Origin: Clavelina lepadiformis
Lineage: Eukaryota > Chordata > Ascidiacea > Aplousobranchia > Clavelinidae
DNA: 64,000 nucleotides
Assembly (NCBI RefSeq): GCF_947623445.1
Contig: NC_135240.1
Location: 10,974,001-11,038,000 of the forward strand
Direction: 5' to 3'
Below are positions 16,555-55,484 of the stretch, piece by piece. The translations under genes were made by a program, and so were the position numbers. Each line of letters opens with the position of its first letter. Position 1 is the stretch's first letter. The notes beneath the pieces are model-generated. The model saw nothing but the letters and a program-made list of their open reading frames with translations, did not search any database and was not told the origin of the DNA.

Positions 16555-19500
16555 CTACAAACGTTTGTATAACACTTTTTTATCAAACGCAAGTGGGTTT
16601 CCAACAAGGGGTTCCACTTTTCCGTCATGTTCTAGAAAGCTTCTTTCCGCATCTACCATGTTTCTTTTTTGGCGTGGAATGCTCAGTTTATTCAACAACA
16701 TTTCGGCCAGTTCTGGAATAAAAGGTTGTAATAAGATGCCAGACACTCGAAGACCTTCGTACACGCAATGCAGGAGAGTCTGCAGAAAGCGCAGTTGATC
16801 TGGAACAGACTTGTCGAGGGTCCAAAGCTGATTTCGATGAATGATAACATTAGCCTTTCTCACAACATTCATAATTTCTCCAATGGCATTGTAGAAATGG
16901 AACTCAAGAGCATGGTTATTAGCAATCCCTGGTAAATTTCGAACTAAATCAATAAATTCAAATTCTTTTTTCGATGCAACAAAACTGCTTACATAGTTTG
17001 GATTAGATGAAAAAATTTCTTGATGGAAGGGTGGGTAAACTTGTTCTGGGTTCAAATGTTTCGCAACAGCACGATTTAAACAGTTTCCCAAGTCATTAGC
17101 AAGGTCAGCATTCAAAACAGCATAGACCATTTCTTCTTTGTAGTCACAATTGTATTCAATGACACCTTGCCTTAGCAAGAAATATCGCAAACCCATCGGA
17201 GTTACCTTCTTTGCCATATCAAAAGGATCGACTACATTGCCCACACTCTTTGACATTTTAAAACTGTTCACAGTCCAGTGGGAATGCACAACTATTTGCT
17301 TTGGTAGTTTTAATCCAGCAGCAATTAGGAAAGCAGGCCAGTAAATTGCATGAAATTTGACTATATCCATTCCAACAATATGGCAGTCTGCAGGCCACAT
17401 GTCTTTAAAAATATCGTTGTTTACTTCTGGATATCCAGCTGCAGTTAGATAGTTCACCAAAGCATCCATCCAAACGTAAATAGTTTGACTTGGGTCGTTA
17501 GGTACTTGTATGCCCCATGGCACACGAGTTCTTTCCCTCGAAACTGACAAATCACCAACAGGTCGATCTAGTGTATCTAGAACAAGCTTTCTCATTTTTG
17601 GTGGATATATAGAATTAGGATTTTCATAAACCCAGGCCTTGACTTGCTCAACTAGTTCTGAAAGTTTGAACATATAATTCGTTTCCTTTGTCCATTCAAC
17701 CATCCTTCCAGTGTCTTTAAAAATATGATAAACTTTGCCGGAGTCTCTGTCTATAACCTGTTCGACATCCAAATCATTCACAAATGTTTCATCCGAAGTT
17801 GAATACCAGCCCTCATAATTCCCTAAATAAAGAAGGATCTTTACTTTAGTATAAAAACCAATGAAAATAACTTACTCTTCCAATATGATAAAATTACATC
17901 TACAACGCTTTGCGATGTAACACTTTCCATAATGCATGCTTACCCGCTTGACACTATCCCAAAATTTCAATGTCCAACAAAAAAAAATCATTAAGAAAAG
18001 AAAGATATGGAAAGAAAGATATCATAAAGAAAAAAAGAAAATATACAATATTTATAAATATGAAATAAAAAGCAACACAAGAAAATCTGGAATAAAAAAG
18101 TTCTTTTTGATAATACCAACTTCAAAGACAACAATTCCCACAATATTCGTAAGCCCATGGTACTTTGCTTTTTAGCAGCTCGGGATTTTGCAGATTTGTT
18201 TTAAGTCATTATGAGATTTTAAATTTTCATGAATTTAATACAGTCGGGATTCCATTCAAACGGGACTGAAGTTGATTAGGCTAAATTTTTCGAGATTATG
18301 CAGCGTGGGAAAGTATTTTTCAAGAAAGGGGGCGGTTCCCAATAAATCATTGCAACATGAAATATAGCAGATTTAAACTTGTGTCTTTAACTAGATCAAT
18401 GCAATTTAGTGCAAACAATTACCTTTGTAAATATACCCATTCGCATGAATTGTATTCCAGAAATTCTCAACAGCAACTTTATGGCGTTCATCAGTAGTTC
18501 TTATAAAATCATGATATTGGACATCAAACAGCTTCATCATGTCTTTAAATCTACGAAACGCAAAGCTTATTCCGTAATATATATATATATTATACATTCT
18601 GAAAAATGCATTTGACATTCCAGACTGTGTGATAGGATTTTATTCGTAATTAAGAAAAATTTAATTCAACCACCTCGCATGGATGATATGTCCATGAAAC
18701 TAAAATCTCAGTCTGGGTTAGATCAGCGCTTGGTATTAGTGTTGCAATCTCAATTTTCAAAAACCAGGTTTGACCAGCTTTTAATTTTTCACAAATAGAC
18801 CTAATTGATAATTTAATTGAACAACAAAACACGAAGATTAAGCTTCTCAATGCGAAGCATCATAAAAAATGTTTATACTATATCACTGATTTGGTACGCT
18901 TGAACGTTTTATGATACGTTTTTAATACTAGTACAGCAAACCGCCAGCAGCATGACCATCCCACCTGCAGTCACCACTTAGCAATGTAGAGCTAGAATAT
19001 TAAACTCAAATTGCACTTAGAGCCGCATTGGAATTTTCAAGTAAGAAGTGCACCAACAAATCAAAGATCTGTTTAGCCTAGTTACTGTATTTTAAATAAA
19101 TTAGGCCTATCTTTATTCTCGAGCGCAGACCCAAGCTTGGCTATGCTGTCGTTGTCAGCTTTATGCCATTTGCATTTTTTTCTATCTTACCATACTGAAA
19201 ATGACATAGCAAGTAACAAACAGTAATATCACGGTCGGTATTTTATAATAATCTATAACTGCTATTACTGAGATTTAGCCAAAGCAATACTTTTTTTTAT
19301 ATTCAGAGTAAAACCAGTAATAACCAGTTTCTCAAAAACTTGTCCTCGGTGATAACCAGTTTTCAAAATTCTGATTTTTAAGCAACCTTATTCAGCATAT
19401 ATTAACTTTGCTACAACTTTGCCATGTTAATGTGAAAAAAAGGGCCAATAAAAATAGCAAACCATTACAAAGTTATACATTGTTTGCTGAGCAAGAAAAT

Positions 19501-19929
19501 AATTCCTTACTTTTGTGCAAGATCATCACAGTATCTTTTTGGATTTTCTTGCTTGGCTACAGCAGCTTGCATCACCTTTGTACCATGTTCATCAGTTCCA
19601 GAAACCAGTTTAGGCTGACTTGTATTAACTGGGTATTTTAATTTCTGCCATCTACAAGCAGCATCTGCAATAGTAGCAGTATAAAGATGGCCAATATGAG
19701 GAACAGAGTTGACATAGAAAATGGGGGTGGTAATATAATAGCTCTTTGATCTTGATGTCAATATAAGTGTACAAGGAAGTTTATTTCGTAACAACTGTTG
19801 TAATTTTCCTAATCGAAAGTACTTTGCGTGCCTCCAGCAAGACTTCATAATTGCATTTGGTACGAACCTTAGCATGTTGCTGAAATAACAAGAGATGATA
19901 TAGACCAATACGATGGATTCATGCTTCAA
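16555..19929 (-). CDS. MARS2: Mitochondrial methionyl-tRNA synthetase
   Basis: Three exons: 19929-19511, 18550-18423, 17822-16555 (phases 2 and 1), 604 residues from the first ATG or 586 from a second in-frame ATG at 19875. The second start gives a better mitochondrial presequence (MLRFVPNAIMKSCWRHAKYF, basic and hydroxyl-rich), so I prefer it. Class I signatures are intact: HIGH (residues 78-81 counted from the first ATG) in YYITTPIFYVNSVPHI, SGTDEHG, DFIRTTDERH, EGWYSTSDE, and KMSKS at 371-375 in FKMSKSVGNVVDPFD. The enzyme charges tRNA-Met with methionine in the mitochondrial matrix. Length fits the roughly 590-residue animal MARS2. Exon 2 uses the acceptor at TTTCGTAG|ATTTAAAG, which joins QK to FKDMMKLFDV as the family requires; the open frame running further upstream is intronic. 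Confidence 0.93.
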
Positions 19930-20003
19930 AAATATTTATTAAAATTGAGTTGTACTTCATAAAATTTTTTTTTATGTAGCCATATTAACTAATATTCCTA
20001 CTG

Positions 20004-24078: not shown

Positions 24079-26420
24079 TTACATGGGACACGCATTCGGC
24101 GTTATATCGCCATACACTCTGTAAGCTGAGTTCGTGTTTATGGACAAGAAATCCAAGCGCATTTTTCTGATACACCCAACATACTGGCTATCGGTTAAGA
24201 GACCTTCTATATACATTCCTGTGCTCCTGTCTGAAGAAAGAAAGAAAGAAAAATACTTTTAAGTAATTGGTATATCCGTATGTTAGCAGTGAGCAGGCCA
24301 AGTTAACTAAGTTAATCACAGTTTCAAATATGACTTAAACTCTAAACTTGGACTGTGCACAAATTGTATTTCTAATTCGACGCATACATGTATATACGAA
24401 GTCAAAAGTCAGTGTATAATTAAACTTACCAGGCACGCCACCAATGAAAAGAGGACCGTCTGTATAACAATTACTATTTTCGAGTGCTCCCTCTTCAATT
24501 GGTGTTACCAGATGATCGTCAACAGTTAAAGCAATAATGTTCTTTGCCTTGATTACTGAAACAAATACGTCATATTAGCCTACGCAGCCAAAACAAGGCA
24601 TCTCCACTTAAATCCCATAACTGTGAGATGAATACTAAAACTCTCTCACTAGGTGAATACTTTAATAGTCATACTAATAAATTTACCTCTTATTTTGTGC
24701 CACTGGCCATCGCATAGGTTTCTTCCAAACGTTGCAGGATTGTAACGCGAAAACAGAGTTTCACCTCCCTGACGTAATCGGGCTGCAATACGGCCCTCCA
24801 CCAACGCAAGATTAAAGAAATTCCCTACACGGCAGACATAATTTGTAGTGACACGAAAACAACCATGACAAAGTTTGAGGCTAAGATTATCTTGTAACTC
24901 ACCAGTCGATCCGCTCACAGCAAAGAGTACCCCACTTTGACTTCTTGGTTTTATTTCCAAGGAAACTTCCATGTTAGTAGCAACGTTGCAAGAATTCATA
25001 GCAATCAGGTGCGCAGAAGTAATCCCGTTACGATTGGGGAAAAACATGCCTAGAATGTCATAAAACGAAGTAATCTTAAGTTTAGTTTTGGGATGAAATT
25101 TTATTTGCAAGGTACGTACCGGGTTCAGTGCCTCCATCAAAGCAAGGCGTTACATTAATGCGAACAGCGGACGGGTTGCTTACTGAATCCACATTTACGC
25201 CATTTATCGTTGTATCTTGAATACAGCCCTGAAAGTCGACAAGGTTTTTCAGCTGAATTTGATCCGTGGCATGTCGCTTTGGTACAGCCTACACAGAATA
25301 ACACATTAATATTACAGACAGATTGAAGCATTTTAAAAGCATAAATTTCAGACAATCATTCTCCAATGAAAACTACTAACATGTTAACACTTATCTATTC
25401 GCAGCTGGCGTATCCTCCAAAAGTTAAAATGGTTCAAAATTTAAAACAAAATGCAGACATATTTTGCGAACAGCTAAAGTAGTCTGTGAGCTTACACAAA
25501 CCAAAATTATTATTCGTATTATGAGTTAATTATGAGCAACGGCTCACGTGAAGTCCTCCGATGTAGAATGGCATATTGGATGGGAAAGTCATCGATTCAC
25601 TAAACATTGTTGCTCGACCCTCAATGCTACCATCAAGCATTAACTGAGTGGTATTTCCTTTTCGTTCGAATGTGATTTTATGCCATGCTCCGTCGTTGTA
25701 ACGGTTAAGCGACTTAATTCTTGATCGTTCTTCACCAAACATCACACTGAAAGCAACTTTTCCCTTCATGAGATATACAGCAACGTGCTCGTGACACCTA
25801 ATCAGGGTAAAACAAACATAAATTCACCTTCTGCAGCATTTCGATTGGTCTTAAGTTCCATTAGTGGAAGTGCAAGTGCAGCCACGAGCACATAAAAAGT
25901 CAACTATATCCGTACCTCGTGTCAGACATAAAGAAAATAAGTCCTTGTTTCTCAGTAGTTCTGATACGCAAGGAATATCTCCAATTATGCGGATTGAATC
26001 GCTTCACAAAGTACTTTGAGTAGCCATCACCTAAAGTTGATGATATTTCAATTAAACTTGTTTGTCAAAGCTGCTTGCCATTGCACCAATTTTACAGATA
26101 TGCCCATGAATTACTATACTTAATACATCGCAGTATAGCCTCGGTAAGTCGACCATCCACGGGACCGTTGTCAAGTGGTCGTGTTATTGAAACGGAATAC
26201 TACACATGGCAATAGCATAAAAGATATTCCGGACAGGGTTGAAGCGACCGTGACACTGGAGTGGTCGTTAACCGGGGTTCTACTGTACTTTGAAACAAAA
26301 TACCTATGTATTTGAATCCACTTGAAGCAGGCTCGTAGGGCAAATAGCAATTTAGGTCATAGCCAGGATCATAGTCCGGAACAGAGGTCAATGCTACCAC
26401 CAGATCATTCGCCCGATTAC
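24079..26420 (-). other. Laminin: LG4 and LG5 exons
   Basis: LG4: 26420-26304, 26030-25916, 25797-25548, 25252-25120. LG5: 25049-24687, 24555-24430, 24230-24079. Landmarks: [93 protein letters not shown] and YVGCIRKM, with terminal CPM. In other laminins LG4-LG5 bind dystroglycan and heparin-like glycans and can be released by cleavage in the preceding basic linker. Confidence 0.9.
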
Positions 26421-29400
26421 CTGCCCTAGTTCTATGTCTTCGACCTTAAATAAATTGAAGTTTCACATCACAAATGGTGCTGTGTTTTGTTTCCACAGCC
26501 AAGTCCAATTACGCTTAATGTTAAAATACATCAAAAACATCTTGGATAATTTAAATTTCATACGTTTTCTTTTGTTTTTGCCCTTTTTCCCTTGTTTAGA
26601 GCTCCTTCGTGTTGAAACTTCACTAATGTCAAGAACATCTGGTGGTGGGCTAGCCTGCGGCCCGCAGGCATTAAATAACGGATTACCACCACATACTGTT
26701 CCGGCTACACCACACTTTAACCCTTCCGTCAGAAAATGCGGGTGATATCTGTCGCTGTTATAAAAAATATTCTTTTATTCGCGACTAAATTAAAATAATC
26801 TCTGATAAAGTTGTCAACGAAAACTAATGCGCTCAATACTGATTTAGAACGCAGTTTTGTGAGTATATCACCAATACATGCACCACATAGAGTAAACATT
26901 ACTAAGGCCTATATGCAGATACCCCTTAATGTATAGATTTTTGATACAGCCATGGAACATAGGTAAATGTTCAACGCCGCCAAGGAAAACGTTTACTCTA
27001 GAGTACAAAACTCTTTGGTTGGTATTTTGTCTTCGTCTCCTACTCAAGTCTTCAGGAAGGTCAGGAAGAAGTTCCTTGTTATCTGTCCGATCAACGCCGA
27101 GCTTAAGAAATCTACAAAAAAACTAATTTTATCATTTTTATTACTATCTACATATAGTTTAGAGAAATATAGTAATCTATTGCCTTATGAACCTATACTA
27201 CTGTAATTGGTGCAGGGCAATAAAAGAGCGCAAATTGGATCATCGACATCTGTCGCCCTATATCAGTGGTTCTCAGGCTTTCATGGTTCGTGGCACCTTG
27301 TTAATCAATAAAAAATGTGGATTGTTGATTGCAAAACACTATTTACATCACTACTGCTGTCTACTACTACACTATACTAACTATAGCATATACACATCTC
27401 GTGGCGCCCAGAAATTGCTACCAGGGCTCCCCAGCGGGGGCCATTGGCACCCGGTTTAGAAACTCTGCACTAATTCTATATATATATAATTCTTAGTAGG
27501 ATGGACTAATTGCGTAAACGTCAAGGTGCAAATTTGTTTCTAACAGCTGGTACAAAGGTACATGCTTTGTCACTTCAATGGTCGCGACCCAGCACACTGT
27601 GCATCAGGTCAACATGAATAAGGGCAAGGAAGCATTCAAGAAAAGAGACACTTGCGATAAGAATGCAAATAGTTCAAAAGTAATTCAGCTGCATTTATCA
27701 CCTTTTGGATTTACCTTATTCGGATTCGACATTGATATTCTTTAAGGTCTTTTTGAGTAAATAGAAAAATTACGATTGTTTAACACTGCCTAGAATGCTA
27801 ATCCATACTTTCACGCCAGTCCTATATTTAAGATTGCATCACTTTGTTCAGTTCATATTTTCCTACTCATTATTCACTTAGGAATTGATAAGACATATAT
27901 ATCTTGTGTGATACTGATAACTATGAAAATTCTGAATTTTTCATCAATAGATTGGGCCTGTGAAGTTATATGTTAAAGAAAATTGCTCAGGTTTGGAGAA
28001 AAACTGGCAACGTTCGAATCTCAGACAAGTTACAGGTCTGTGCTAGTTAAATGACTATCTTCTTCATACCTTAATAACTACATAAACACTGGAAGGGTTA
28101 GGTATATAGCAATTAACAATGCAAATAAATAATAAAAGCAACCTTTTAAATTTGTTTACACATTCACCGAAAGTAATATAGGTAAACAAAATGCCCTCAT
28201 TAATAGTAAGGTGAAAGAATTACTAACCCATCAGCTCTCCTGGCAAATATCACTTCATGATCTCTGCCATCAGCATAAAAACCATGAGATTCTAGCTCTC
28301 GTGCTCCATCGGACAAAACGATATGACCATCTCTAAAGAACACCGATACATGGCGGTCGGTCTGCAACCAGAGTAATACCACTGTCAGATGCTGTAGGTG
28401 GGCTTTTTTGTGTGGTCAATGAAATGATATTTAGGAAATTAACCAGGCCATGAACAAAAAATAAACAAGAAAAATGAAACAAAATGAAACGTTCTTCCAC
28501 TCACCTCTGGCCGTTTTACTCATAGGCTGCACCACAATATCTCTGTAACACGTACAACATTTCTACATCACTATACTATTCAAACTATTGTGTTATTTGC
28601 CTGACAGAACTTTCTCAATCACCCATCTCAATACCTGATCCTTTTCCATTTCTTACAACATTGACATAACGTTTGATATGTACAATTTTATTGTTTTTTT
28701 GTAAAATGACACTGTTCGCATAGACAACAAAAAACCGGATAACAAACGAAACGTTTTAAACTTTTGTTCTAATTTACAAGAAAATATTTCAATGATTGAT
28801 TTATTAAACTTGTTACGATTTTATATCAAACAAAATACACGGTTTATGAAGTCTATATTCACAGGGCTATAGCTTGCAAAGTATAACATGCAAAATTTGT
28901 GAAGCAAAGTGTACTAGAATAGTTATATACAGTTTAATTCCGAATACAAACGCATAGAAGCTGTGCATGTACCATCAATTTAGCACCACACATAGGTAAT
29001 TATTTTGCTGTACCATTTAGTTGCAGTAAGTACCATACAAAGTTATGTACAAATTATTTTATAATGCAAGATAACATATTTATAAAATGATTAGTTGGCA
29101 TACAATACATTCACCGTACAAAATGTGCTTGCTTGAAGCATCAACATCCATTTCACCACATAAAATATTACGTCGACACATGCAAATAACTGGGAACCTT
29201 ACGAACAGGCTTATCATATCTACATATCTATAAGTTATTCAAGTTATACATTTCCTATTTATATAATTTAAAATTTACTGACTGCAACATAAGCTTCATA
29301 TTTCTTAAATCTCATAGTAAAACTTTGTTGCTTCCCCGTACACAATTCTACCAATCCATTTGAGCAGTACGCTGAGCCTGAACATTATTTAGAGGAGCCT

Positions 29401-32400
29401 GTTCTGGAGCAGGTGGCTGTGCGGCCGCTCCAGAACTAGCAACTAGGCTGGATTTAAGCACAGTAGACACCACTGCAGCAAGCAATACTATACCGACGAT
29501 AACCCCGATGATAATCAGTACAACTGGCAACGCGCTGCTGCTTGTGCTTGTAGAAGCTTCATCAGCATTATTCTGTGGTGGGGCAGCATATCGTGCTGCT
29601 TCTCCTACCTTGTCTGGTACCACAAAGGAAGGCTCTCCTGCATTGTCATCTGCAGGCTCAGGCACATCTGCTGCAGGTTCTTCAGCTCCTTCTGACGGTG
29701 TTTCCTCAGAAGTCACTTCATTCTCCTCGGTAGCCTCACCTGCATCAGCATTACCAGCTGGTGGAACAACATTTGGTTGGATCATTTCCGAATCCAAACT
29801 ATCCTGTATTATTGAAAAACGAGCTTAGAATTATAATTAGTAATTTGTAACCACATTGTTTGCATTTACGTGAACATTGTATTAGGCTAGAACTTTGGTT
29901 AAAATCTACAGTTTGCATTATGATGACTAGCACAAGACATAGGAATTACATATACAATTGGCACAATCAGCATGCCTACATACCATTAGTTAGGAATTAT
30001 TACAGCTCATGCATTGGCATACAATAATTAACACTTACGTTTAGGCTTTACACAAGCACTATTCCGTACAGAGACGTGCAGGTTATGGAGTCGCATTTAA
30101 TACGCAAAAATGACACCTCACCACACCAAACGGTACATAGTTTGATATGCCATGTACACCTGGGCATCTTCAATAGCTGACTACTGTGCAACTGACATCT
30201 ATTCATCTATTCTACTAACAATTTTTCTTCAAAAATTGCTGCATACTTTAGTTATTCTACTTTCTTCTAGTGCTTGTAATAACAAAAATGATTTTAAAAT
30301 GATCTAAAAACATGCAGTTTATTAAAACAATTTATCCCATGCAAATTAATATGACATATGTTACAAGAGCATTAAGCCACGATAATTAAATTTTAATGTG
30401 AAAATGAAATTAGAAATCAACAATTAATGGCGTGATAAATATCAGTAACCACAATATATGTCAGGTATCAACAGGGTTGTAACCAAGTCAATTTTTTGTG
30501 ACTGGAGTCAATACCTTTCAACAGAAAAACTATTTTGACGTCACATTATGCGTTAAATTGGTAGCCGTTAAATTGGTAAAAAATAGGTCATAAACTGTCT
30601 ACGAATTAGTCTGGTTGATATTTTTACAAAGAGTTGTAATTTTTTTGAAAATGCTCCGTTTTTGTTACATGAAATGTTCTTTTTACCCTTCACAATAGTC
30701 ATAATATGACTCGAGTTATTTTGGACTTTTGACTCGAGTCAAGTCGAACCCTGTTGATACCTGAGTCAAGTCGAGTCATCAAAAAAGGTGACTCGAGTCA
30801 ATACAACACTGGGTATATATACTAAAACTAATTCGCTGATTGAGCATTTGATACCAAAACAAAAGGGCAAACGTTTACAAATACTATTTTAAAATATTTT
30901 CAGGCAAGTGACTACGCTGACTAAAATACTCGTAATTCATAAAAACGTGTACATAAAGTGAACCAAATTATGTGTTGCTGCAGTGTTAGAAGTTTGTGAC
31001 AGTTTATGTACGTGTATCAATGGAAGTTGACATGCATTCCAAATGAGTAGTAAGGGATTATAGATGTAAACAAATGCTATGGTTACAAAAAAAATACAGC
31101 CTATAAAGTGAGTCATGCAGGATGAAACAGCGCTGATTTAAGAGAATTAATAAAAATAGTAACAATAAGCATACATAACAACATCCAATTTTGCAATTAA
31201 TGTATGGCAATGCTAATTTTACAATCCAGCACCATGTGACACACTACATTTCTACCTCAGTTTCCTTGACACTAGCCACTGTGCCTGTTGCAACAGTTGA
31301 CCTTACAACGGTACCACCTTCAACCTCTTCAGCATTTGGCAAGGCTGTTGGTACTTTAATGTAATCGCTTCCTTGGAATTTCAACGCTTGCACGCTCTGA
31401 GAAAGTATTGTAATCAAATGATTAAAACTACAAATGTATGTCATGTAAACTACGAAGACAATTTATCAGAATGTTGGACATACATCTTTTGAACAGCCGG
31501 GGGACACGCCAAGCTTTTCTTTGGAATTCTGAATATCAAAGGTCTTGCCGTTAAAGTTTAGATCACGAATGCAGCCACGGTAGGAAACGTTCATACTGCT
31601 CAGCACTGAATTGAATCTAAGACGCAAAATAAAATTTACTGGAGTGTTTTGTAGGCACGTAGTGTAATACTTACACCTGTATTAGTATAGAAGTACAATT
31701 TACCATTTGGTAGTACAGCATACTTACTCTGGTTTAATATCTGCATGCCACTGTCCACCAAACCAAAGATCTCCTCTGACATCTATTGGAGTGTTTTCAA
31801 AGTCCTCATTCATAGCAATTGTGCTGTTTATATAAATATATTTGTATTAGCTATTCTGTATATTATTAACATTACTATAGTTAAAAAATGTGGTTGCTTT
31901 TCCCTAAAAGCAAGTGGTAATCATACACAATACAACTACTGCAGTATTTCACTGAATGATAAAACGTGTTTTGGAAAACAACATGTAAAACTGAATTGTG
32001 CGTTATAGTTTCAGATATTTTTTCTGAAATTAGCATATTACATGTTCAGAATCATTTCAACAACAAAATATGTTGTTTCACAAATAGACACTTTACTTAC
32101 TCTCCATGAAATGCCACTATGACTTTATGAAGGGCAGGTATAATGCCAGCTTTCATCAACAGCGCATATTTGCGTTTAGTTATCTCTGGAGAAGTTTCAG
32201 CAGTTGCATTCCTAGGACCATTCGTAAATCCAAAGTTCCAGGTTACAACCAATTTTCCATTCACCATCTCAACGGCAAAGAATTGTTCCTGAAACATACG
32301 TTTTTATTTACACTGATGAGCAACTTTAGAGTCATTTGCAGCCTTTAAAACTGTCTTGTTTGTGTAATAATTCAGGTGGCCCGGGCAAATATAATGAGAA

Positions 32401-35400
32401 ACTTACTATGCTTTCTCCAACAAGGAAGAGTAAACCATTTTCTTGCAGGGTTTCAAACCTGAAGCTAACATAGTGTGCCTTGGCATTCGCATCAAGATCA
32501 AGGAAGGGGGTGTCACCACGACCAATTCGAATATAACTTCCTCGTCCACTGAACCGCCAGGCTGTGTTCAATCCAAGATTTGCAGATCTATAATAATACC
32601 ATTGTTTAATCATTCTACTAATTAGCTACGGATTTAATTGCATTAATTGTCAATCTAATGCAATAGGAAGATTTCAGATGTATAGCTAAGTGCAAAGGGA
32701 ACTTAAATGGTATTAAAGTCATTTAGAAGCACAAGCTGTAGCATTAATAGAAATGTGATGGCCCTTACCCAGCTAAATTACCAGGAACAGTGACGACAAA
32801 ATTTGTTTCATGCCTTCATGATTGAAAGAAGGATTAATAATGAATTACAAGAAAATGAATGCAATTAGCAGCATAAAGCATGCATGGGTACTGAAGCAAA
32901 ATGAATGCAATATTGCATAAATCCACTGATGCTTGGGTGATATAGATACATGTTAACTAACTGTAAACATTCAAAATGAGTTGCAATGAAAATGACTTGT
33001 TATTAAACTCAATGTCTTTATTAGTTCATATTTTGTCTTGGCAAACGAGGCAGTGAGACAATGTGGTTTCTGGCACACTTACCCACTTGCTCCAGTACCA
33101 CTAATTATTATCAACAAAAAGTTTTTAGTTTGTAAGATAAAGTGGTAGAATTACATGCGACTACTGCAAAATACTACACTACTGCAAGTAAAAAAGGTTA
33201 ATTGCAGACCATTTGTACAAGATATTAATCACTTGATTTCTACAATTGGCAGACCGCATGAATTAGTTGTAAAATTTAAAAAATAAAATGCGTGCAATTA
33301 TTAAATAAAAATTAATCGAAATACAAAGTAAAGACAAACTTTATTGCATGTTACTGTGAAAATAATTATTCCCCGCATACCTTCCATAACAATTTCTTCC
33401 AGGAGATGGGCCTCTGTAGGCTTTAAAATTCCACAAACCAGCAGTTTCATTGTTTACTGTTGTCCTGCCTATGCACACATTGTTGACATTTCTCTGAACA
33501 CCATCAGGCGGCTAAAATGAATATAATATTGAAATTAAAATAAAATCAATTCCATACTAAAAAACAAAATTTGCAAATGCTACTATTAGTATTAGCACGT
33601 CAAAACACATAAAAGCAACTACTAAACGATTAGTAACCAATGTTAGTACCGTCGCTGGGTTTCCACCCACAAAAAAGTTGGAGCCGGCATGAGTCATGCT
33701 GGCTATCATATCGTCCTGATTGGTCGTTCCATCAGTTACTTCATAGGAATTGGCCGCATTACCACCATCTCCTCTACCATCTACTGCAATGGTTTCTACT
33801 TTAAGGACGCCCTGATTCCCTGACCTGGTTAGGAGAGAATGTGACTTTCACAGAAAGTGTGGCTTGAGCAATGCAAGTAAATTTTCTCTTAAATGTCATG
33901 ATGATGATGATGTGTGGAGTGATTTCTTTTATTGTGTCTAACTATCGCAATCAACATCCCTACTAAAAAGTCTCTAGCAGGGCCTTGCAATTTGTACATT
34001 TAACATCGTTTTTACACATAACTACATCTGCTTCCAGATCTAGGAAATCTCTTAAAAACAAACTGCTTTTAAAAGTACATAATTCAGTTTTCCATTTCCC
34101 TTCCCAGTTTTGTTCGTTAGTATATATCATTTAGCTATTCACTGCACTCATTGTAAGTGAGATTAACAGTCATTAGACTCAAAGAAAGGTGAATACAATA
34201 TTGAGTTCTAAGCAAATGAACAACACAACCCAACGTGGCAAAACCTTCAGTGACTACCAACTGCCATACCAAGTTGCTGACCTACCACAAGAAATATAGG
34301 ATAAGAGCCAATAAACATGGATGATTTTTCGCTCAATTTCATCCTCATTCGAGTTCGTTTATGATGTTTAGTATGAATAGATTCATCATAAAATTTTTTC
34401 CAAACATGTAAAGTTGTGTTATATCGAGACCTACTTAAAAAATCGTGAGTGATAACTGCAATGAAAGTGTTCATAATTTGATTGTGTTATGGTAAATGCA
34501 CAGTGCCAAGCTTGCAAAATATTCATAAAAAATAGATTCTACACATCAAGTTTTGTAGAATAATACTTTTCCTAAATTTTTTGAACATGCAAATAAGAAT
34601 GCATACCTTTGAATAACTATCGTGTGCCAGTTTCCATCATTAATTGGGACCTCACTTTCAAGCATTCCTTTACCTCTTCCAACCTTGAAATGGAATCGGG
34701 GTCTTCCATTGACAGTGTCAAGAGCAATAAAATCACTATCAGGATTCTACAATACAAATGAAATGTTGTTATCTTAGTTATTGGTCAACTAAAACAGATG
34801 CTTTAGGATTAGCTATATAGAGTAGTAACTTATGACATGGCATTCACAAACAGACAAATTTGCGAACTTTGTTCTTGCTTTCTCATAGATACAAATCCAT
34901 AGTATTTCCTAGCACTGCATGGTAATGGTCAAATGTGCTGCTGTGAACTTACATTTGAATCACCAAGGTAAAAGATTGCATTGTCTGGGCTGTCAGGAGA
35001 AACTTGAGCATCCAACTGAACATGAATGTTGGTGTCAAGGTCCTCGACAGCTTGTGGCATTCGTAGCTCAACATATTCAGTGTTGGGGTCATTCGTTGCA
35101 AATTGTATTGTAGATTTTACCTGGAAAATTGCCATCGTAATTACATTACTTTGACTTTTCAATTTACAGTTTACACAAGAGTAAAGGAGAATCAGTAAAC
35201 AAGCAAACCAGTTAAGTAAGATAAACTCACCATATTTGCTTTGTCTCTGGCCAGCAAAATCAACTTCTGTATATCATTGATCCTGTTAACCATCTGGTGA
35301 GTAGTTTCCAATTCATCCAATCGAGCTTTGGTTGTTTCAGCATTTGCAACAGCTTCTTCCATATTTGAAATAGTTTCTGGTAAAGCGTCCACTAAAACGC

Positions 35401-50400: not shown

Positions 50401-53400
50401 AACGTATTGCGTTCCCATAGTGGGAAATATGTTTCTGTTCCGATAAGAAGCGGTTTTAAGCACACCACTTCCGAAAAATTCTGGTGGGCTCACAAGAATT
50501 CCGATATTCTTGTGTAAGTCGGAGTTTGAATTTGTGATTTGAGAATTTGGGGCAACACCAACAGTGTTTTGGACATAGCTTGATGAAGCTGTTGAGGTTA
50601 CAAATATTTCAAAGAAATGTGTGTTATAAATAAAAATAAAACTCATCAAAACAAAAAGAAAAACAAAGCGATCCAATTGGACTAAAAACTGAAGTGAAAT
50701 TAAATATCAGATAGCTGAAACCCTACTTACGTCTGCATCCATTTGGATCACTAGGATCAATATCAGCTGGTCTCCAGTAACCACTGGCACACTGCTCACA
50801 GTTTATGCCGGCAGTGTTGTGCTGGCAATTTTGGCACATGCCACCTCCTTCATAGTTACCCAGCAAGTCAAGTGAGAGGCGACGAAGAGCAACATCCTCG
50901 TCATAAACACATTCATTGCTGTGTCCATAGCAGTTACAGGCTATAAACAAGATATTTCATCAATACTTAAATTAGAAAACATTATTACAATGAAACTTAG
51001 CTATAAATTCCACTATATTAGTATGAAACCTATGTAATTCACCGTGTTAAAAATCACCTTTATCATAACTGTATGATCTTAAACAATTATTTTAATTGTC
51101 AAAGTATGTACCTTCACATTCATTTGTTGACTCCGGCACTGCTGGTCGCCAAGCCTTCTGCACGAATCCAGCACAACAATACTCACAGCTATCACCACAA
51201 GTATTGTGGCGACATTCACATTTCAACCTTTCGTAATAAAACAACATTAAGGCAAAATTACAGTGTCCATCTCAATAGATGGTATGGTATAGCTTTCAGA
51301 ATGTATACCTAAACTAAAGAAAGACCTTCCACCATTTTATCTGGTCATTGACCCCAACCACTTGAGCCCTTTGGGTCCTTTTTCCACTTTGTGCGTTAAC
51401 CAATGTTATATATATGCATACAGTATTTACTGTTTTTGTGGTTTTACCCAAATTTGCAACTGTTTAGCAGGGCCATTAAACAGGATCAGGTGTTGTTAAT
51501 ATTTTACCCTCTAATGGCACTACAACAATAGCACAGTGGTATCGAGAATTAAACCAAGTTTGTACAATTGCAAGTCCAACACTTCAGCCAATACACTACT
51601 ACTGTAAGTTAACTAAGTTAGTTGATTTTCATTATGTTGAATCAAATGTGACTAAAACATAATCCATTATGTATTTACTTGTATTGATCTTGCGGGTCAG
51701 GTGAGCAGGTATCTGCATGTCCATTACATACACAGCGACCACCAATACTGATGTCCTTGATACTGTAGTAGTACTGCATACAAATTATTTCACTCGTTAG
51801 CAAAATAATAGGTCAGAAGTATATTTTTATTTTATCAAAATATTAAGTATGCATACTTAAAAATTGTATCAACATATGTCCAATTGTACATAGTTTAGGA
51901 AAGGGAGAATGGGTATGCAAAAAGTTGATTTTAGTTATTTAGGGTTGAATTGAAGATAGACTTAGATTAAAAGGTAGTTTTAGGTTAGGTTTAGGTTACT
52001 ATATTAAACCATTTAAGTTATAATCAGAAACTGTGAAAAATAGCTTTGAACGCATGATTTTTTCAGGTGAAATAGTGGCAACCAAAATGTTAACTTCTTT
52101 TGGACACTTACACGGCGAGTTACAGTTGGGTCCTGTTCAGATACTGCCATCAAATGTCCAAGAAGTGTTTTGGTTCGCAAAAAGCGAAGTCGCACGTCGG
52201 TAGCTTTGCTCCATTCTTGTAGAACGGTGGCATAAGAAAAGTTCTGGGCGCCAGGTCGGCCTTTCACCATCGACACAATCACCTGAAGAAATTTCATCAT
52301 TTAATTAATTAATAACAATTGGGAAGCTGGTCTTTGATACCTAATTCAATACGCCAAATCGTTTTACGTTAGGATGGTAAACTTAAAACAAGTATGAACA
52401 GCAAATCATTGAGGAAATCCGGTACGCAATTGACTTTAGCGATTCGGAAATAATTTTTTTTTTAAGTCAATGACGCACGACGATAAGTGCTGAACTATAT
52501 TTGGAGAGCGACGCAAAAAATTCAACACGGCAATCAAAAAGAATAGTTGGAAGCTGAATGTGAATTTAAAGGGTTACCTCTCCGTTTTCAAGCGGGACAA
52601 CACTGGAGTAATCAGACGTGCAAACTACGCTGTCATCTCTGGTAATCTCTTCCAAACTGTCCATTCCAAACAGATTGTAGCAATCGCTGTCAGTGTTGGC
52701 GAAATATTGCCATGGCTGATAGGTATGGCCATAATCAGAGGAATGTTCCAGAACCCATGTTCCAGCACGAGGTGAGTTGGCAAACTTGATCAGAACGTAT
52801 GCAACGTGAAACACCTGTCAAAACGAAAAGGTTTAAGATATTTGATCTGTGTGAAAAGATTATACATCAAATATAGCAGCTAAAATGCGCGGTTGTGGTG
52901 CATTAAACAATTGTACAAATTGGAAATGGGAACGGTAATATCGTAAATTGTTAGGATGGTTCTTTAGGGTGTGAAAGTAGCACGCTGTTCTAAATCCAGA
53001 AATTAGAACAAATGAAATTTTTACAATTAATTATCCACGGCGCATTATCAATTTACGCTTTTTGCCTTTCTCACTGAGAATTGGCACAATTGGCACTATA
53101 AAGCCCTTGAGCTAAAATCAAACCGCATGCCACAGGGCTAGCACTGTTTTGCCAAAAAAAGGAAACCGGCCGTACAAATGACTTTGGGTCTTCCTGCCAC
53201 AGGTAAGTTTAAAGATCATAGCATTCATACTGTAGACTTATAACGTAATTGGAGAAAGGCAGGAGCGGCGGCGGTCTGATAACCAGCGCCTGCTGTATTC
53301 GACAGGGCGGAAACCAATCAAACAGACACACCAACATCGGTCGGGTGGAGTTTGCGAAAGTAGACCCGCCATTTACGTTTACGATTACTTTGAGGTATTT

Positions 53401-54548
53401 AGGCTACTGCTATCATTTCGTCGTCAATCCTCTTTACATGTTTAGACTTGCACAAATGTAATTTAAACGGCGCAATTGTATTTATAGCACTGGAAGCATT
53501 TGTTAATTTAATATTTCCAACCAAACCAGCCCAATAAACCTAAATCCTATTAAAAGTAGTAGCCTGAATACTAAGTACGATGTACTGTACTTTGGGATAT
53601 TTGCATTGGTTTTGCCTTGTGAACAGTTTCTTTGGTACGTATTCATTGGTAATTTAATGATTTTAGAAGGTTTTTACTGACACATGCGCAACCCCAGGGG
53701 CGGAAAATTACGCGATTTGGTGACACTGACAGTCAGTGTCTTACAATTTACAACTACTTTACACATAAATATCAATCGTACTTCAGTGTATACAAAAAGG
53801 AAACACTGCAGTGTACCATTTCCCAATCAGGCGTTACTATGCTTAGTATGCTACAATCAGTTTCTATTCTGCTTTAACGATCCCACAAGATAGTTTATTC
53901 GAAGAGTGTTACCCAATTATGATCCAATCAATTAGAATCGTAAGTTCATGATGATATTGACATTAATGATGCAAGAAAAAACAACTCCTATCAACCAACC
54001 TGTCCAAGATGGATTGTTAGGTTGACCTTGTTGTATTCGTTTCCACGCGACAGGGGCGGACTCTGCCACCATTTCTCGGTTCCGTCAATTGCGTTCTTCA
54101 CAGGATGGCTTTTCTCTGGTATGTTCGAAGCACAGACATCGCAAACCTGTCCTTCGTGAAGACTTGTGCTATATTCGAAGTTGGTTCCGCCGGTCAATTT
54201 ACAGAATAAGTCTGGACCCTCTTGGCCACAAGTTGCAGTGGTATCGATTCTTTTACCTTAAGCACAAAACCCATAGTTAAAGATTGTTAATCGTCAGCAA
54301 ATGCATGCTAGCACAATACAAAATGCAACATTAGCATGACACCTCAACACACCATAAAGTAGATAACTAGTGAACTATGCTAATATACTAAGTGACCATT
54401 GGCACTAACAAAACTTACCGGTAGCGATGTTGAAATACGGTGGGCTCAAAACGTTCGGCGATTTTTCGCGGATGATAGGCGTATCACCATTAGTTACCTG
54501 CCCATTGCAAAAGCATAGCAAAGCCAGAGCTATCGCAAAGCGCAGCAT
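24079..54548 (-). CDS. Laminin alpha chain (alpha-3/4/5 type), full-length form
   Basis: About 70 exons reconstructed with consistent phases (coordinates under the domain entries), total about 11,088 nt or 3,695 residues. The ATG at 54548 begins a signal peptide ([15 protein letters not shown]). Order: LN, first LE tract, L4b, LE, L4a, LE, coiled coil, LG1-LG5, ending in CPM-stop at 24079. LN at the N-terminus and five LG modules at the C-terminus identify an alpha chain; having both an L4b-type and an L4a domain points to the alpha-3/4/5 (alpha-5-like) class rather than alpha-1/2. Secreted alpha chains assemble with beta and gamma chains through the coiled coil, polymerise through LN domains and bind integrins and dystroglycan through LG modules in basement membranes. 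Several predicted alternative exons are listed separately. Two introns appear to be GC-AG. Exact splice choices are inferred by hand. Confidence 0.93.
26131..26285. mobile_element. MITE in the LG4 intron
   Basis: 155-bp element with inverted ends CAGTATAGCCTCGGTAAGTC (26131) and the complement of CAGTAGAACCCCGGTTAACG (ending 26285), of the 'cggttaacgacca' family. It takes up most of the 273-bp intron between exons 26420-26304 and 26030-25916. Confidence 0.75.
27264..27467. mobile_element. hAT-like nonautonomous element (degenerate)
   Basis: Starts CAGTGGTTCTCAGGCTTT and ends GGTTTAGAAACTCTG, a degraded CAGNGGTTCTNAAAC terminal inverted repeat, with internal TCGTGGCACC / TCGTGGCGCCC. No clear target duplication. 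Located in a laminin intron within LG3. Confidence 0.5.
29348..29803 (-). CDS. Laminin alternative terminal exon with transmembrane helix
   Basis: 456 nt from a phase-0 acceptor (TTTTTCAATAATACAG, start 29803) to a TAG at 29348-29350, encoding 151 residues. The first 85 or so form an acidic Pro/Ala/Glu-rich stalk ([18 protein letters not shown]), followed by a hydrophobic helix at about residues 91-114 ([20 protein letters not shown], containing the GxxxG motif GVIVG), a Lys stop-transfer residue and a tail of about 37 residues. It lies inside the laminin gene between LG3 exons, on the same strand, and its phase matches the donor at 31256. The predicted product (about 3,310 residues) would be a laminin alpha chain anchored in the membrane after LG2 and half of LG3. 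AATAAA (28804-28799) lies downstream. No other first exon for it was found, but a separate short gene cannot be excluded. Confidence 0.68.
   Translation of the reverse strand, partial: DSLDSEMIQPNVVPPAGNADAGEATEENEVTSEETPSEGAEEPAADVPEPADDNAGEPSFVVPDKVGEAARYAAPPQNNADEASTSTSSSALPVVLIIIGVIVGIVLLAAVVSTVLKSSLVASSGAAAQPPAPEQAPLNNVQAQRTAQMDW
30463..30815. repeat. Inverted-repeat element rich in gactcgagtcaagtc
   Basis: Arms AGGTATCAACAGGGTT (30463-30478) and AACCCTGTTGATACCT (30747-30762) are perfect reverse complements, surrounded by many GACTCGAGTC/CAAGTCGAGTC words up to about 30815. It lies in the laminin intron just upstream of the transmembrane terminal exon. Class unknown. Confidence 0.65.
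32769..32813 (-). CDS. Laminin 45-nt cassette exon
   Basis: Forty-five nucleotides, phase 2 in and out, acceptor CTTCTTTCAATCATGAAG, donor GTAAGG; adds [15 protein letters not shown] to the LG1-LG2 junction. The flanking exons 33511-33381 and 32587-32407 also join in frame without it. Confidence 0.5.
33083..33100 (-). CDS. Laminin 18-nt cassette exon
   Basis: Eighteen nucleotides between an AG acceptor (AATAATTAG) and a strong donor (GG|GTAAGTGTG). Phase 2 in and out; would insert a Ser/Gly/Thr-rich SGTGASG-type linker between LG1 and LG2 without changing frame. Confidence 0.55.
35231..38974 (-). other. Laminin: coiled-coil (domains I/II) exons
   Basis: Exons 38974-38823, 38748-38635, 37870-37781, 37539-37393, 37282-37141, 37042-36833, 36710-36490, 36373-36221, 36104-35961, 35869-35773, 35631-35467, 35391-35231. 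Cys-poor, heptad-rich and acidic after the opening [13 protein letters not shown], which carries the two Cys that link the alpha chain to beta and gamma chains in laminins. This region forms the three-chain helical rod. Confidence 0.88.
39063..40646 (-). other. Laminin: LE tract between L4a and coiled coil
   Basis: Exons 40646-40486, 40350-40212, 40065-39898, 39823-39620, 39565-39534, 39466-39307, 39200-39063. Regular LE modules ([54 protein letters not shown]). The 39565-39534 exon is only 32 nt; it supplies [10 protein letters not shown] between EPG and [10 protein letters not shown], and phase requires it. Confidence 0.9.
40844..41762 (-). other. Laminin: L4a domain exons
   Basis: Exons 41762-41648, 41514-41353, 41206-41113, 41035-40844 (start in exon 42034-41892). 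Landmarks: [58 protein letters not shown] and VEECTCPPG at the return to LE sequence. This is the classic laminin IV type A globule. Confidence 0.9.
41892..42695 (-). other. Laminin: LE modules between L4b and L4a
   Basis: Exons 42695-42370, 42265-42106, 42034-41892. LE modules such as [20 protein letters not shown] and QCDRCKE, then the L4a entry [15 protein letters not shown]. The 42370 exon ends in a GC donor (CAAAG|GCAAGT); the acceptor at 42265 restores the frame as AG|A. Confidence 0.88.
45476..45599 (-). CDS. Laminin alternative exon 17b
   Basis: 124 nt, phase 0 in and phase 1 out, beginning [19 protein letters not shown]. Carries the same start (PT.VM) and LYR core as 17a. Including both exons shifts the frame and gives a stop (ACC TAA), so the pair must be mutually exclusive. 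Confidence 0.82.
45986..46136 (-). CDS. Laminin alternative exon 17a
   Basis: 151 nt, phase 0 in and phase 1 out. Begins [19 protein letters not shown] and ends in VDCLD before donor GTAAGT. Homologous in sequence, length and position to exon 17b, so it encodes an alternative version of the same strand region of L4b, with two extra Cys near its end. Confidence 0.78.
49516..49734. mobile_element. hAT-like MITE in a laminin intron
   Basis: Ends CAGTGGTTCTTAA (49516) and TTAAGAACCATTG (ending 49734) are inverted repeats with one mismatch, of the CAGNGGTTCT type common to hAT nonautonomous elements. Internal 'aggggtctgtggagca' and 'agtccacaattg' also fit. No clear 8-bp target duplication was seen. 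Confidence 0.7.
49981..50588 (-). CDS. Possible alternative terminal exon or nested gene in laminin intron 7
   Basis: An unusually long open frame for an AT-rich intron, open from 50676 to the stop at 49981. A plausible acceptor (ATTTGTAACCTCAACAG, exon start 50588) enters the frame in phase 1, the phase left by the preceding laminin exon (ending at 50731, donor GTAAGT), giving 201 residues of Ser/Thr-rich, Cys-free sequence and a stop. It contains an internal near-repeat ([14 protein letters not shown] and [13 protein letters not shown]) and ends in basic [10 protein letters not shown]...FTFL. If spliced this way the product would be LN plus the first LE modules plus this tail, analogous to the short laminin N-terminal (LaNt) proteins known from mammalian LAMA3. 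Alternatively an ATG at 50646 with a hydrophobic start ([15 protein letters not shown]) could begin a nested single-exon gene. Function unknown. Confidence 0.5.
51679..54548 (-). other. Laminin: signal peptide and LN domain exons
   Basis: Exons 54548-54419, 54256-54000, 52814-52578, 52282-52112, 51773-51679. Typical LN landmarks: [86 protein letters not shown] and [17 protein letters not shown] leading into the first LE module. LN domains mediate Ca-dependent laminin polymerisation. Confidence 0.92.
51900..52095 (+). repeat. Dispersed repeat R3, copy 1
   Basis: 'tatgcaaaaagttgatttta', 'ggtttaggtta' and 'ctgtgaaaaatag' followed by 'accaaaatg' recur in the same order and strand at 56278-56500, with substitutions between. 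It overlaps the 3' side of a laminin intron. Class unknown. Confidence 0.55.
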
Positions 54549-55484
54549 TCTGGCACTTAATTTGACTCGAATAATATAGCGGATCCTAATCCGGTCACTC
54601 TTTTCTCGCTGCTTGGTAAAAATATTTGCACAATTGTCGCAGACTGTCGCTTGTCGTCTACTTCTGCGAAATGTCGACGCCTTCCGAGTTGGTCTTCTGT
54701 CACAACCCGGTCATGCTTGACCGATTTTGAGAAAAAAGTGGTTCGCTTTCTTCTCTTTCTTTATCGTCAAGTTTTCGCAATTACCGGTCTCGCCGCGATC
54801 GCGCTTCAGGTTGCATCTTTTGTTCTCATTCATGGCAAGTTGGCAACGCAAAACAATAGAATTTAAACGAAACCTGGCTGCAGAAACACAATAACCACTT
54901 TATGGTTATAACAAGAAGAGTCCAAGACTTCTGCACATGGCAATTGTTTTATTGTATCGTCATAAAGACTCCAAGAGTCAAATCACTATGTTCATTGTTA
55001 AAAGGTAAGAAATAAATTCTCCAAAATGGAAACAATAAAAGTGTGAAACACAAACTAAAGTAAGGTCTGAATGGGCTAAAATGTTGAAGCAAGATCTACT
55101 AAGTTTTCTGCATTCGAAGGTACGTTGGTATGCGATTCATCAAAGCAAAAAGGTCAGCTTCCAAATAAATCCATCTTTGGAAAAGTGAGTATAATTGAAT
55201 TTAAGGCTACGACCAATCCTAACATAACTACGGTAATTCACAAAACTATCTTCTAAAAGCGAACCGTTTCCAACAGAAACGAAGACCTTGCAGCCGCCGT
55301 GCGTCAATTGCAATTTGCCCCAGATTATACAGATACTCAATCTACACGTTCGGAAATTTTTGGTGAAAAGTATGGCGAAAAATACCCCTTGTTTACTATA
55401 TATGAAATGAAGGTAAAAAGTGTACTAACTTAATTAGATTTTTTGGTAAAGCATTAACAAAATGTCGACTTATTTCGTCACTAG
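54549..55484. other. Divergent spacer between laminin and the 55.5-kb gene
   Basis: About 0.9 kb between the laminin start codon (minus) and the first recognised exon of the plus-strand gene. Probably holds the laminin promoter and the missing first exon(s) of the other gene, but no TATA box, initiator or exon could be identified. A minus-strand frame at 55140-55340 has no support. Confidence 0.4.

What the first reader, a model, noticed from the sequence alone, without database searches (positions are those of the whole stretch)
29348..29803. Predicted membrane-anchored laminin alpha isoform
Laminins are secreted. Here a phase-compatible terminal exon inside the laminin gene encodes an acidic stalk, a 24-residue hydrophobic helix with a GxxxG motif, and a short tail, in place of the rest of LG3 and all of LG4-LG5. 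Phase, strand, acceptor and position between LG3 exons all fit. A laminin tethered to the cell that makes it would change how a basement membrane is nucleated. I know of no described laminin alpha with a transmembrane C-terminus.
Basis: partly seen in the sequence, partly recalled or inferred. Interest (0 to 1): 0.88.

Follow-up and report, generated by a model that had tools for sequence, protein, structure and literature searches.

The report
Predicted membrane-anchored laminin alpha isoform
A sea-squirt laminin gene, whose product is normally released to build the sheet under tissues, contains a real, conserved extra end-exon that could tie the laminin to the membrane of the cell that makes it, but no RNA has yet been checked to prove that it is used.

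Summary
Window 29803-29348 (-) is a 151-codon exon with a phase-0 acceptor: acidic stalk, 26-residue hydrophobic segment with GxxxG, 34-residue tail, stop. It lies in the phase-0 LG3 intron of a laminin alpha gene whose ordinary LG1-LG5 end is intact. It is coding: its codon score exceeds 230 of 230 intron windows, and one protein from an unnamed 108-kb ENA contig, P0001, shares the segment (22 of 26) and the tail (E 2.8e-16). Segment and tail are constrained, the stalk drifts. In its own genome the exon has no second copy and is P0001's only match. The paralogous laminin alpha has a 98-bp intron near the same site and no such exon.

Not shown: a transcript joining laminin exons to this exon, or that P0001 lies in a laminin gene; two searches with laminin exons found nothing on that contig. 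A nested independent gene is the main rival. Best reading: an alternative 3'-terminal exon giving a membrane-tethered laminin alpha with LG1-LG2, without complete LG3 and without LG4-LG5. No described equivalent was found.

The parts
29348..29803 (-). Alternative terminal exon: acidic stalk, transmembrane segment, predicted cytoplasmic tail, stop
   Evidence: open frame, codon bias, homolog P0001, no second copy found
29453..29530 (-). Transmembrane segment [26 protein letters not shown] (residues 92-117 of the exon)
   Evidence: KD19 3.48; 22 of 26 residues identical in P0001; helix in the model
29351..29452 (-). Predicted cytoplasmic tail, 34 residues, ending QMDW
   Evidence: Alignment to P0001, 0 of 5000 shuffles as good
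31256..31396 (-). First LG3 exon (LG3a), phase-0 donor GAG|gtagaa; presumed splice partner
   Evidence: donor score 1.72, lowest of 19
31484..31616 (-). Last LG2 exon (LG2d), phase-0 donor GAT|gtatgt; alternative splice partner that would skip LG3a
   Evidence: donor score 6.16
28228..28361 (-). Second LG3 exon (LG3b) used by the ordinary isoform
   Evidence: LG3 with LG3a joined to LG3b matches Laminin_G_2, E 4.8e-7, residues 34-155 of the 178 given
24079..28361 (-). Remaining exons of the ordinary isoform: rest of LG3, basic linker, LG4, LG5, stop TAA 24081-24079
   Evidence: Exon model in frame throughout; LG domains
31484..35120 (-). LG1 and LG2 exons, retained in the predicted anchored isoform
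   Evidence: Laminin_G_1 E 1.9e-29
28687..28938 (-). Candidate polyadenylation signals after the stop: ATTAAA beginning 28938, AATAAA beginning 28805 and 28692; base composition alone predicts about 1.5 of each in the 986 bases scanned
   Evidence: Positions and G+C 0.316; expectation is my own arithmetic
52148..54710 (-). 5' end of the same gene: frame with signal-peptide-like start and laminin N-terminal domain exons
   Evidence: frame 54710-54405, read by eye; that frame has no Pfam match; Laminin_N matches, window 54000-54272, 52563-52850, 52148-52285

Best explanation
The exon is an alternative 3'-terminal exon of a laminin alpha gene. When the LG3 (or LG2) donor is joined to it and the transcript is polyadenylated in this intron, the chain ends as LN arm - LE repeats - coiled coil - LG1 - LG2 - (47 residues of unfinished LG3) - acidic stalk - transmembrane helix - 34-residue cytoplasmic tail. 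The laminin signal peptide puts the chain in the secretory pathway; the helix stops transfer (Lys ends the segment, N-terminal side outside), so an alpha-beta-gamma trimer would reach the surface already anchored in the producer's membrane, with its LN arms free to polymerise and without complete LG3-LG5. Shown: the exon is coding, conserved in one other genome and phase-compatible, and the ordinary isoform is intact. Inferred: the splice, the surface topology, trimer assembly, and the role as a membrane-fixed nucleator or sensor of laminin network.
For: Phase, strand and position. Codon use like the LG exons, 0 of 230 intron windows as high. Homolog P0001 with conserved segment, tail and stop but drifting stalk; its single match in the window's genome is this exon. 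No other copy found in the genome that could be its 'real' gene (one first-look candidate each). Without a separate first exon the protein has no signal sequence for its stalk; the laminin chain supplies one. An intron near the same place and in the same phase in the paralogous laminin alpha is 98 bp and empty, so the exon sits in what looks like an old intron. Precedent for intronic 3' ends in a laminin gene: LaNt alpha31 of LAMA3 (PMC9788559, passages).
Against: No RNA evidence. Donor at 31256 is the weakest of 19. Besides LG3b's own acceptor, at least 11 of the 152 AG sites scanned in the intron score better than this acceptor. Poly(A)-like signals are about as many as composition predicts. 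P0001 could not be placed in a laminin gene: two searches with other laminin exons returned no protein on its 108,254-bp contig. The intron holds one candidate separate first exon of a kind found in only 10 of 180 equal stretches. The exon has two strong donor-like sites inside it, 29740 and 29609. An unfinished LG3 stub may misfold. Stalk acidity is weak in P0001 (8 acidic, 4 basic).
Confidence: 0.66

Rival explanations
1. The exon is the body of an independent small gene nested in the laminin intron. Its mRNA would start in the intron, or be made by spliced-leader trans-splicing to the acceptor at 29804 (trans-splicing in ascidians is recalled, not from a call), and start at the ATG at 29785 or in an upstream first exon. 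It would be a small single-pass membrane protein unrelated in function to laminin.
For: A candidate first exon exists: ATG at 31116, hydrophobic start [20 protein letters not shown], phase-0 donor at 31012; frames meeting the cut-offs set just below its values occur in only 10 of 180 same-length stretches of the window, so it is uncommon. Trans- and cis-splice acceptors look alike. Synteny of P0001 with laminin is unproven.
Against: Same strand and matching phase with laminin are unneeded coincidences (phase alone is 1 in 3). Started at its own ATG the protein has no signal sequence. The N-terminal part, including the start, is only weakly alike in P0001 (stalk-only: 41 of 2000 shuffles as good).
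Confidence: 0.22
2. The acidic stalk is an in-frame cassette of the secreted laminin: exon 29803-29609 ends at the strong internal donor AAG|gtagga and continues to LG3b, inserting 65 acidic residues in LG3; the rest is intron read by chance.
For: Donor score 7.86 at 29609, phase 0.
Against: The stretch after that donor is the conserved part (segment, tail and stop); the stalk is the part that is hardly conserved.
Confidence: 0.04
3. The exon is the end of a short LG-containing membrane protein made from an internal promoter of the laminin gene (LG1-LG2-anchor without coiled coil or arms), rather than of a whole laminin chain.
For: Phase-0 donors at several upstream LG exons allow it.
Against: No internal first exon was looked for among the LG exons; nothing seen favours it over the full chain.
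Confidence: 0.07
4. Chance open frame without function.
For: The antisense strand is open too (29382-29828, 148 residues), as G+C is 50% here.
Against: Homolog with the same segment, tail and stop; codon score.
Confidence: 0.01

Closest known systems
Agrin, transmembrane form (TM-agrin)
   Same: A basement-membrane LG-domain protein made in a secreted and a transmembrane form from one gene (PMC9643518, passages)
   Different: Anchor is N-terminal and chosen by an alternative first exon; here it is C-terminal and chosen at the 3' end
Usherin (USH2A)
   Same: LN, LE and LG domains with a single-pass C-terminal helix and a cytoplasmic tail that binds PDZ proteins; a short isoform has been proposed (PMC7317166, passages)
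   Different: Not a laminin chain: 32 FN3 domains, no laminin coiled coil (recalled); separate gene
LaNt alpha31 (LAMA3)
   Same: Truncated laminin made by ending the transcript inside an intron of a laminin alpha gene (PMC9788559, passages)
   Different: Keeps only LN and LE; made by intron retention rather than a spliced terminal exon; no membrane anchor described in the passages seen
Membrane versus secreted immunoglobulin mu chain
   Same: Choice between a secreted end and an acidic stalk plus helix plus short tail by alternative 3' processing (recalled, from no call)
   Different: Membrane exons lie after the secreted end in Ig mu; here the membrane exon lies before it
Neurexins
   Same: LG domains, stalk, helix, short tail with PDZ ligand (recalled)
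   Different: No LN, laminin LE or coiled coil; not trimeric (recalled)

Membership tests
Laminin alpha chain (the gene) | LN domain at the N-terminus | tested here: met
   Laminin_N matches at window 54000-54272, 52563-52850, 52148-52285
Laminin alpha chain (the gene) | Laminin EGF-like repeats | tested here: met
   EGF_laminin E 1.8e-15 in 42357-42788
Laminin alpha chain (the gene) | Five LG domains | tested here: met
   LG1-LG2, LG3, LG4-LG5 matches
Laminin alpha chain (the gene) | Coiled coil before the LG domains | tested here: inconclusive
   Heptad-like exons read by eye; Laminin_II gave no exon-level match in the genome (0 of 11 candidates)
Laminin alpha chain (the anchored isoform) | Transcript that joins LN to LG exons and this exon | not testable with these tools
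   No RNA data held
Laminin alpha chain (the anchored isoform) | Complete LG1-LG3 and LG4-LG5 at the C-terminus | tested here: not met
   Exon would replace LG3 after 47 residues and all of LG4-LG5
Single-pass membrane protein | One hydrophobic segment long enough to span a bilayer | tested here: met
   KD19 3.48; conserved in P0001; helix in model
Single-pass membrane protein | Membrane insertion and N-out topology | not testable with these tools
   Lys at the end of the segment, no Lys or Arg in the last stalk residues (sequence only)
PDZ ligand (tail) | C-terminal motif bound by a PDZ domain | not tested
   MDW end fits a class II pattern (motif recalled)
Conserved alternative exon in tunicates | Orthologous exon inside the orthologous laminin gene of a relative | tested here: inconclusive
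   Homolog found but its source organism and gene context could not be read

The most novel reading that the evidence does not exclude
Some tunicates make a laminin trimer that is an integral membrane protein of the producing cell: alternative 3' processing swaps the receptor-binding LG3-LG5 end for a transmembrane helix with a conserved cytoplasmic tail, so the laminin network can be nucleated, and its tension or assembly read inside the cell, without integrin or dystroglycan as the first anchor.
Probability: 0.45. Interest if true: 0.88.

Novelty: new variant of a known kind. Interest (0 to 1): 0.72.

Why it matters
Laminins are treated as secreted proteins that are held on a cell by sulfated lipids, integrins or dystroglycan (PMC11260871, passages). 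A laminin with its own membrane anchor and a conserved cytoplasmic tail would be a receptor and a matrix protein in one, fix basement-membrane nucleation to the cell that makes it, and show a 3'-end switch between a secreted and a membrane form in a core basement-membrane gene. It can be tested directly with existing Clavelina RNA-seq.

Tried and rejected
Tried without result: scans of viral contigs and genome contigs with P0001 and P0004 found no relatives; the short pattern gave 54 stretches of viral contigs, taken as chance matches and not examined. The donor scan of the intron was one column out of register and is replaced. Using contig length as a tag to place P0001 next to laminin exons failed: the EGF exon query (2 proteins of 3 candidates) and the joined LG4 + LN query (7 proteins of 7 candidates, all matched through the LN part) gave nothing on the 108,254-bp contig; since no LG4 exon was found from any source, this is inconclusive rather than negative. 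P0004 (LN exon, 93% identity over 36% of the query, longest contig 66,891) suggests that a close relative's laminin is in the database. Pfam on the exon and on P0001 gave only sub-threshold matches. In script 66 the paralog's LG3 exon was cut one base too long (it prints 97 for the intron; read it is 4919-5016, 98 bases), and its pairwise alignment to LG3 was too weak to use; the intron match rests on phase and on the nearby DG motif, by eye. Laminin_II and Glyco_hydro_6 searches of the genome gave nothing. The structure model is of low overall confidence and was not searched against structure libraries.

Searches for print (open-licence PMC only; subscription papers not searched): 3 papers listed; 4; 15 of 21 listed; 15 of 17; 12; 2; 10; 0 papers hold Clavelina lepadiformis and laminin. 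No title or displayed abstract start describes a laminin alpha with a transmembrane segment. The 4 papers were opened at the phrase: two speak of dystroglycan as a transmembrane laminin-binding protein or receptor, two cite one title on cell membrane-bound laminin-332 in cancer cells, which I have not read.
Full report
What is there. The window is G000:C1:10974001-11038000. The lengths of contigs C1-C9 (28.78, 26.53, 25.73, 25.07, 24.62, 20.77, 20.45, 19.51, 15.73 Mb) match the nine chromosomes of Clavelina lepadiformis kaClaLepa1.1 (28.79, 26.54, 25.74, 25.07, 24.62, 20.77, 20.45, 19.51, 15.73 Mb; PMC10884593, passages), so I take the window to be chromosome 1 of that ascidian. The totals differ a little (209.06 Mb in 95 contigs; 210.1 Mb in 102 scaffolds). 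A laminin alpha gene runs on the minus strand from a signal-peptide-like start near 54.5 kb (by eye) to a stop at 24081-24079. Laminin_N matches lie at 54000-54272, 52563-52850 and 52148-52285, laminin EGF repeats at 42357-42788, and LG1-LG5 in 20 exons from 35120 to 24079, which I joined by hand and which stay in frame to the stop. LG1-LG2, LG3 and LG4-LG5 match Laminin_G profiles; laminin alpha structures in the PDB match LG1 to the start of LG3 and LG4-LG5 best.

The exon. Within LG3, exon LG3a ends at 31256 in phase 0 and LG3b starts at 28361 in phase 0. With the two joined, LG3 matches Laminin_G_2 (E 4.8e-7, residues 34-155 of 178, profile 4-125 of 126), and the match begins within LG3a, so no LG3 exon seems to be missing. 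The exon 29803-29348 lies in this 2.9-kb intron with a phase-0 acceptor. It encodes 91 stalk residues (22 acidic, 2 basic), the segment [26 protein letters not shown], and a 34-residue tail. It is the most hydrophobic of the 41 frames of at least 100 residues in the window. Its codon score, 0.494 bit per codon, is above all 230 overlapping intron windows (maximum 0.069) and within the range of the LG coding sequence that trained the table (0.27-0.58); G+C by codon position is 0.69/0.49/0.32. A model from two aligned sequences shows one helix over the segment, pLDDT about 90, with the rest of low confidence.

Conservation. A search of 5.77 billion proteins returned one match at E<=10 among 386 candidates: P0001, 106 residues, one ENA contig of 108,254 bases, E 2.8e-16. 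Its organism is unknown. The segments agree at 22 of 26 positions; tail-only alignment scores 109 against a maximum of 53 in 5000 shuffles; both proteins end in QMDW at the stop. The stalks are only weakly alike (41 of 2000 shuffles as good), and the stalk holds a degenerate 38-nt internal repeat. So what is preserved is the membrane segment and what would be the cytoplasmic tail. In the window's own genome P0001 matches only this exon (69% over residues 39-106), and the exon itself has no second copy (the first look passed one candidate each time).

The paralog. A second laminin alpha gene lies at C3:17.719-17.747 Mb. Its LG3 has a phase-0 intron within a few residues of the same place (by eye), 98 bases long, with no such exon. 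In the fetched 9.5 kb, the only two forward frames of 40 or more residues above the hydropathy cut used (2.2) are an acceptor-side extension of an LG3 exon and a frame beyond the last LG exon. The exon therefore appears peculiar to one of the two genes.

What was not shown. No RNA could be looked at. The donor of LG3a scores 1.72, lowest of 19 (range to 8.99), and the preceding LG2 donor, also phase 0, scores 6.16; either could feed the exon, and joining from LG2 would avoid an unfinished LG3. The acceptor scores 4.49, above 8 of 20 real acceptors (-0.85 to 9.04), but, besides LG3b's own, at least 11 of the 152 AGs scanned in the intron score higher. Two strong donor-like sites lie inside the exon (29740, 29609). 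AATAAA begins at 28805 and 28692 and ATTAAA at 28938; composition alone predicts about 1.5 of each. Whether P0001 lies in a laminin gene is unknown: two searches with other laminin exons found no protein on its contig.

How it would work. Inferred: joined to the laminin chain, the segment would act as a stop-transfer anchor with a Lys at its inner end and the tail in the cytoplasm. The chain would keep the arms and coiled coil, so it could still trimerise and polymerise. It would lose LG4-LG5 and complete LG3; in vertebrates LG4 binds sulfatide, heparin and dystroglycan, with further dystroglycan sites in other LG domains by isoform (PMC11260871, passages). The LG2 face that integrin alpha6 contacts in the laminin-511 complex would remain (PMC8241838, passages), so loss of integrin binding is possible but not certain. 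The basic stretch KRKRRRHR in the LG3-LG4 linker of the ordinary isoform (read) looks like a proprotein-cleavage site and is absent from the anchored form. The likely role is a membrane-fixed nucleator or sensor of laminin network on the producing cell.

Rivals. A nested independent gene is the serious one: the intron offers one hydrophobic ATG frame with a phase-0 donor (31116 to 31012), and such frames occur in only 10 of 180 stretches of the same length, so it cannot be waved away. A cassette use of 29803-29609 is allowed by a strong internal donor but goes against the conservation pattern. Chance is strongly disfavoured by P0001.

Known relatives. Agrin has secreted and transmembrane forms through alternative first exons (PMC9643518, passages). 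Usherin combines LN, LE and LG domains with a C-terminal membrane segment and a PDZ-binding tail (PMC7317166, passages). LAMA3 makes the short LaNt alpha31 by ending transcripts in an intron (PMC9788559, passages). None of these is a laminin chain with a C-terminal anchor, and the open-licence searches listed none by title or displayed abstract start; the four papers that hold 'transmembrane laminin' or 'membrane-bound laminin' mean receptors or bound laminin-332 (passages).

Verdict. Observation confirmed; interpretation likely but unproven at the one decisive step, the splice. I rate the isoform reading 0.66 and interest 0.72.

Noticed in passing
window, about 30470-30830: The intron between LG3a and the exon carries a dispersed repeat of about 330 bp: matches at 39 other places of the genome (52 further matching pieces; 40 of 164 candidates scored), with 18-nt perfect inverted arms at 30461-30478 and 30747-30764; MITE-like.
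   Followed up: partly
G000:C3:17719274-17746596 (L070 covers 17739000-17748500): A second laminin alpha gene, with compact LG introns and no membrane exon seen in its LG3 intron.
   Followed up: partly
window 29557-29594 and 29740-29777: 38-nt direct repeat (71%) inside the stalk coding sequence ([11 protein letters not shown] / [11 protein letters not shown]), perhaps a sign that the stalk grows by internal duplication.
   Followed up: no
window 16555-19935 (-): Methionyl-tRNA synthetase gene (tRNA-synt_1g E 1.1e-58 in 16555-17871), probably the mitochondrial one, next to laminin.
   Followed up: no
window 62623-63288 (-): DDE_1 transposase-like frame (E 2.5e-20) with a zinc-finger-like frame beside it (by eye).
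   Followed up: no
window 31256-31396: LG3a lacks the usual F.FRT..GLLL core motif of LG domains (by eye; motif recalled); the LG3 of this chain may be unusual even in the secreted form.
   Followed up: no
window 29382-29828 (+): Antisense strand of the exon is also open for 148 residues, with a lower codon score in all three antisense frames.
   Followed up: partly
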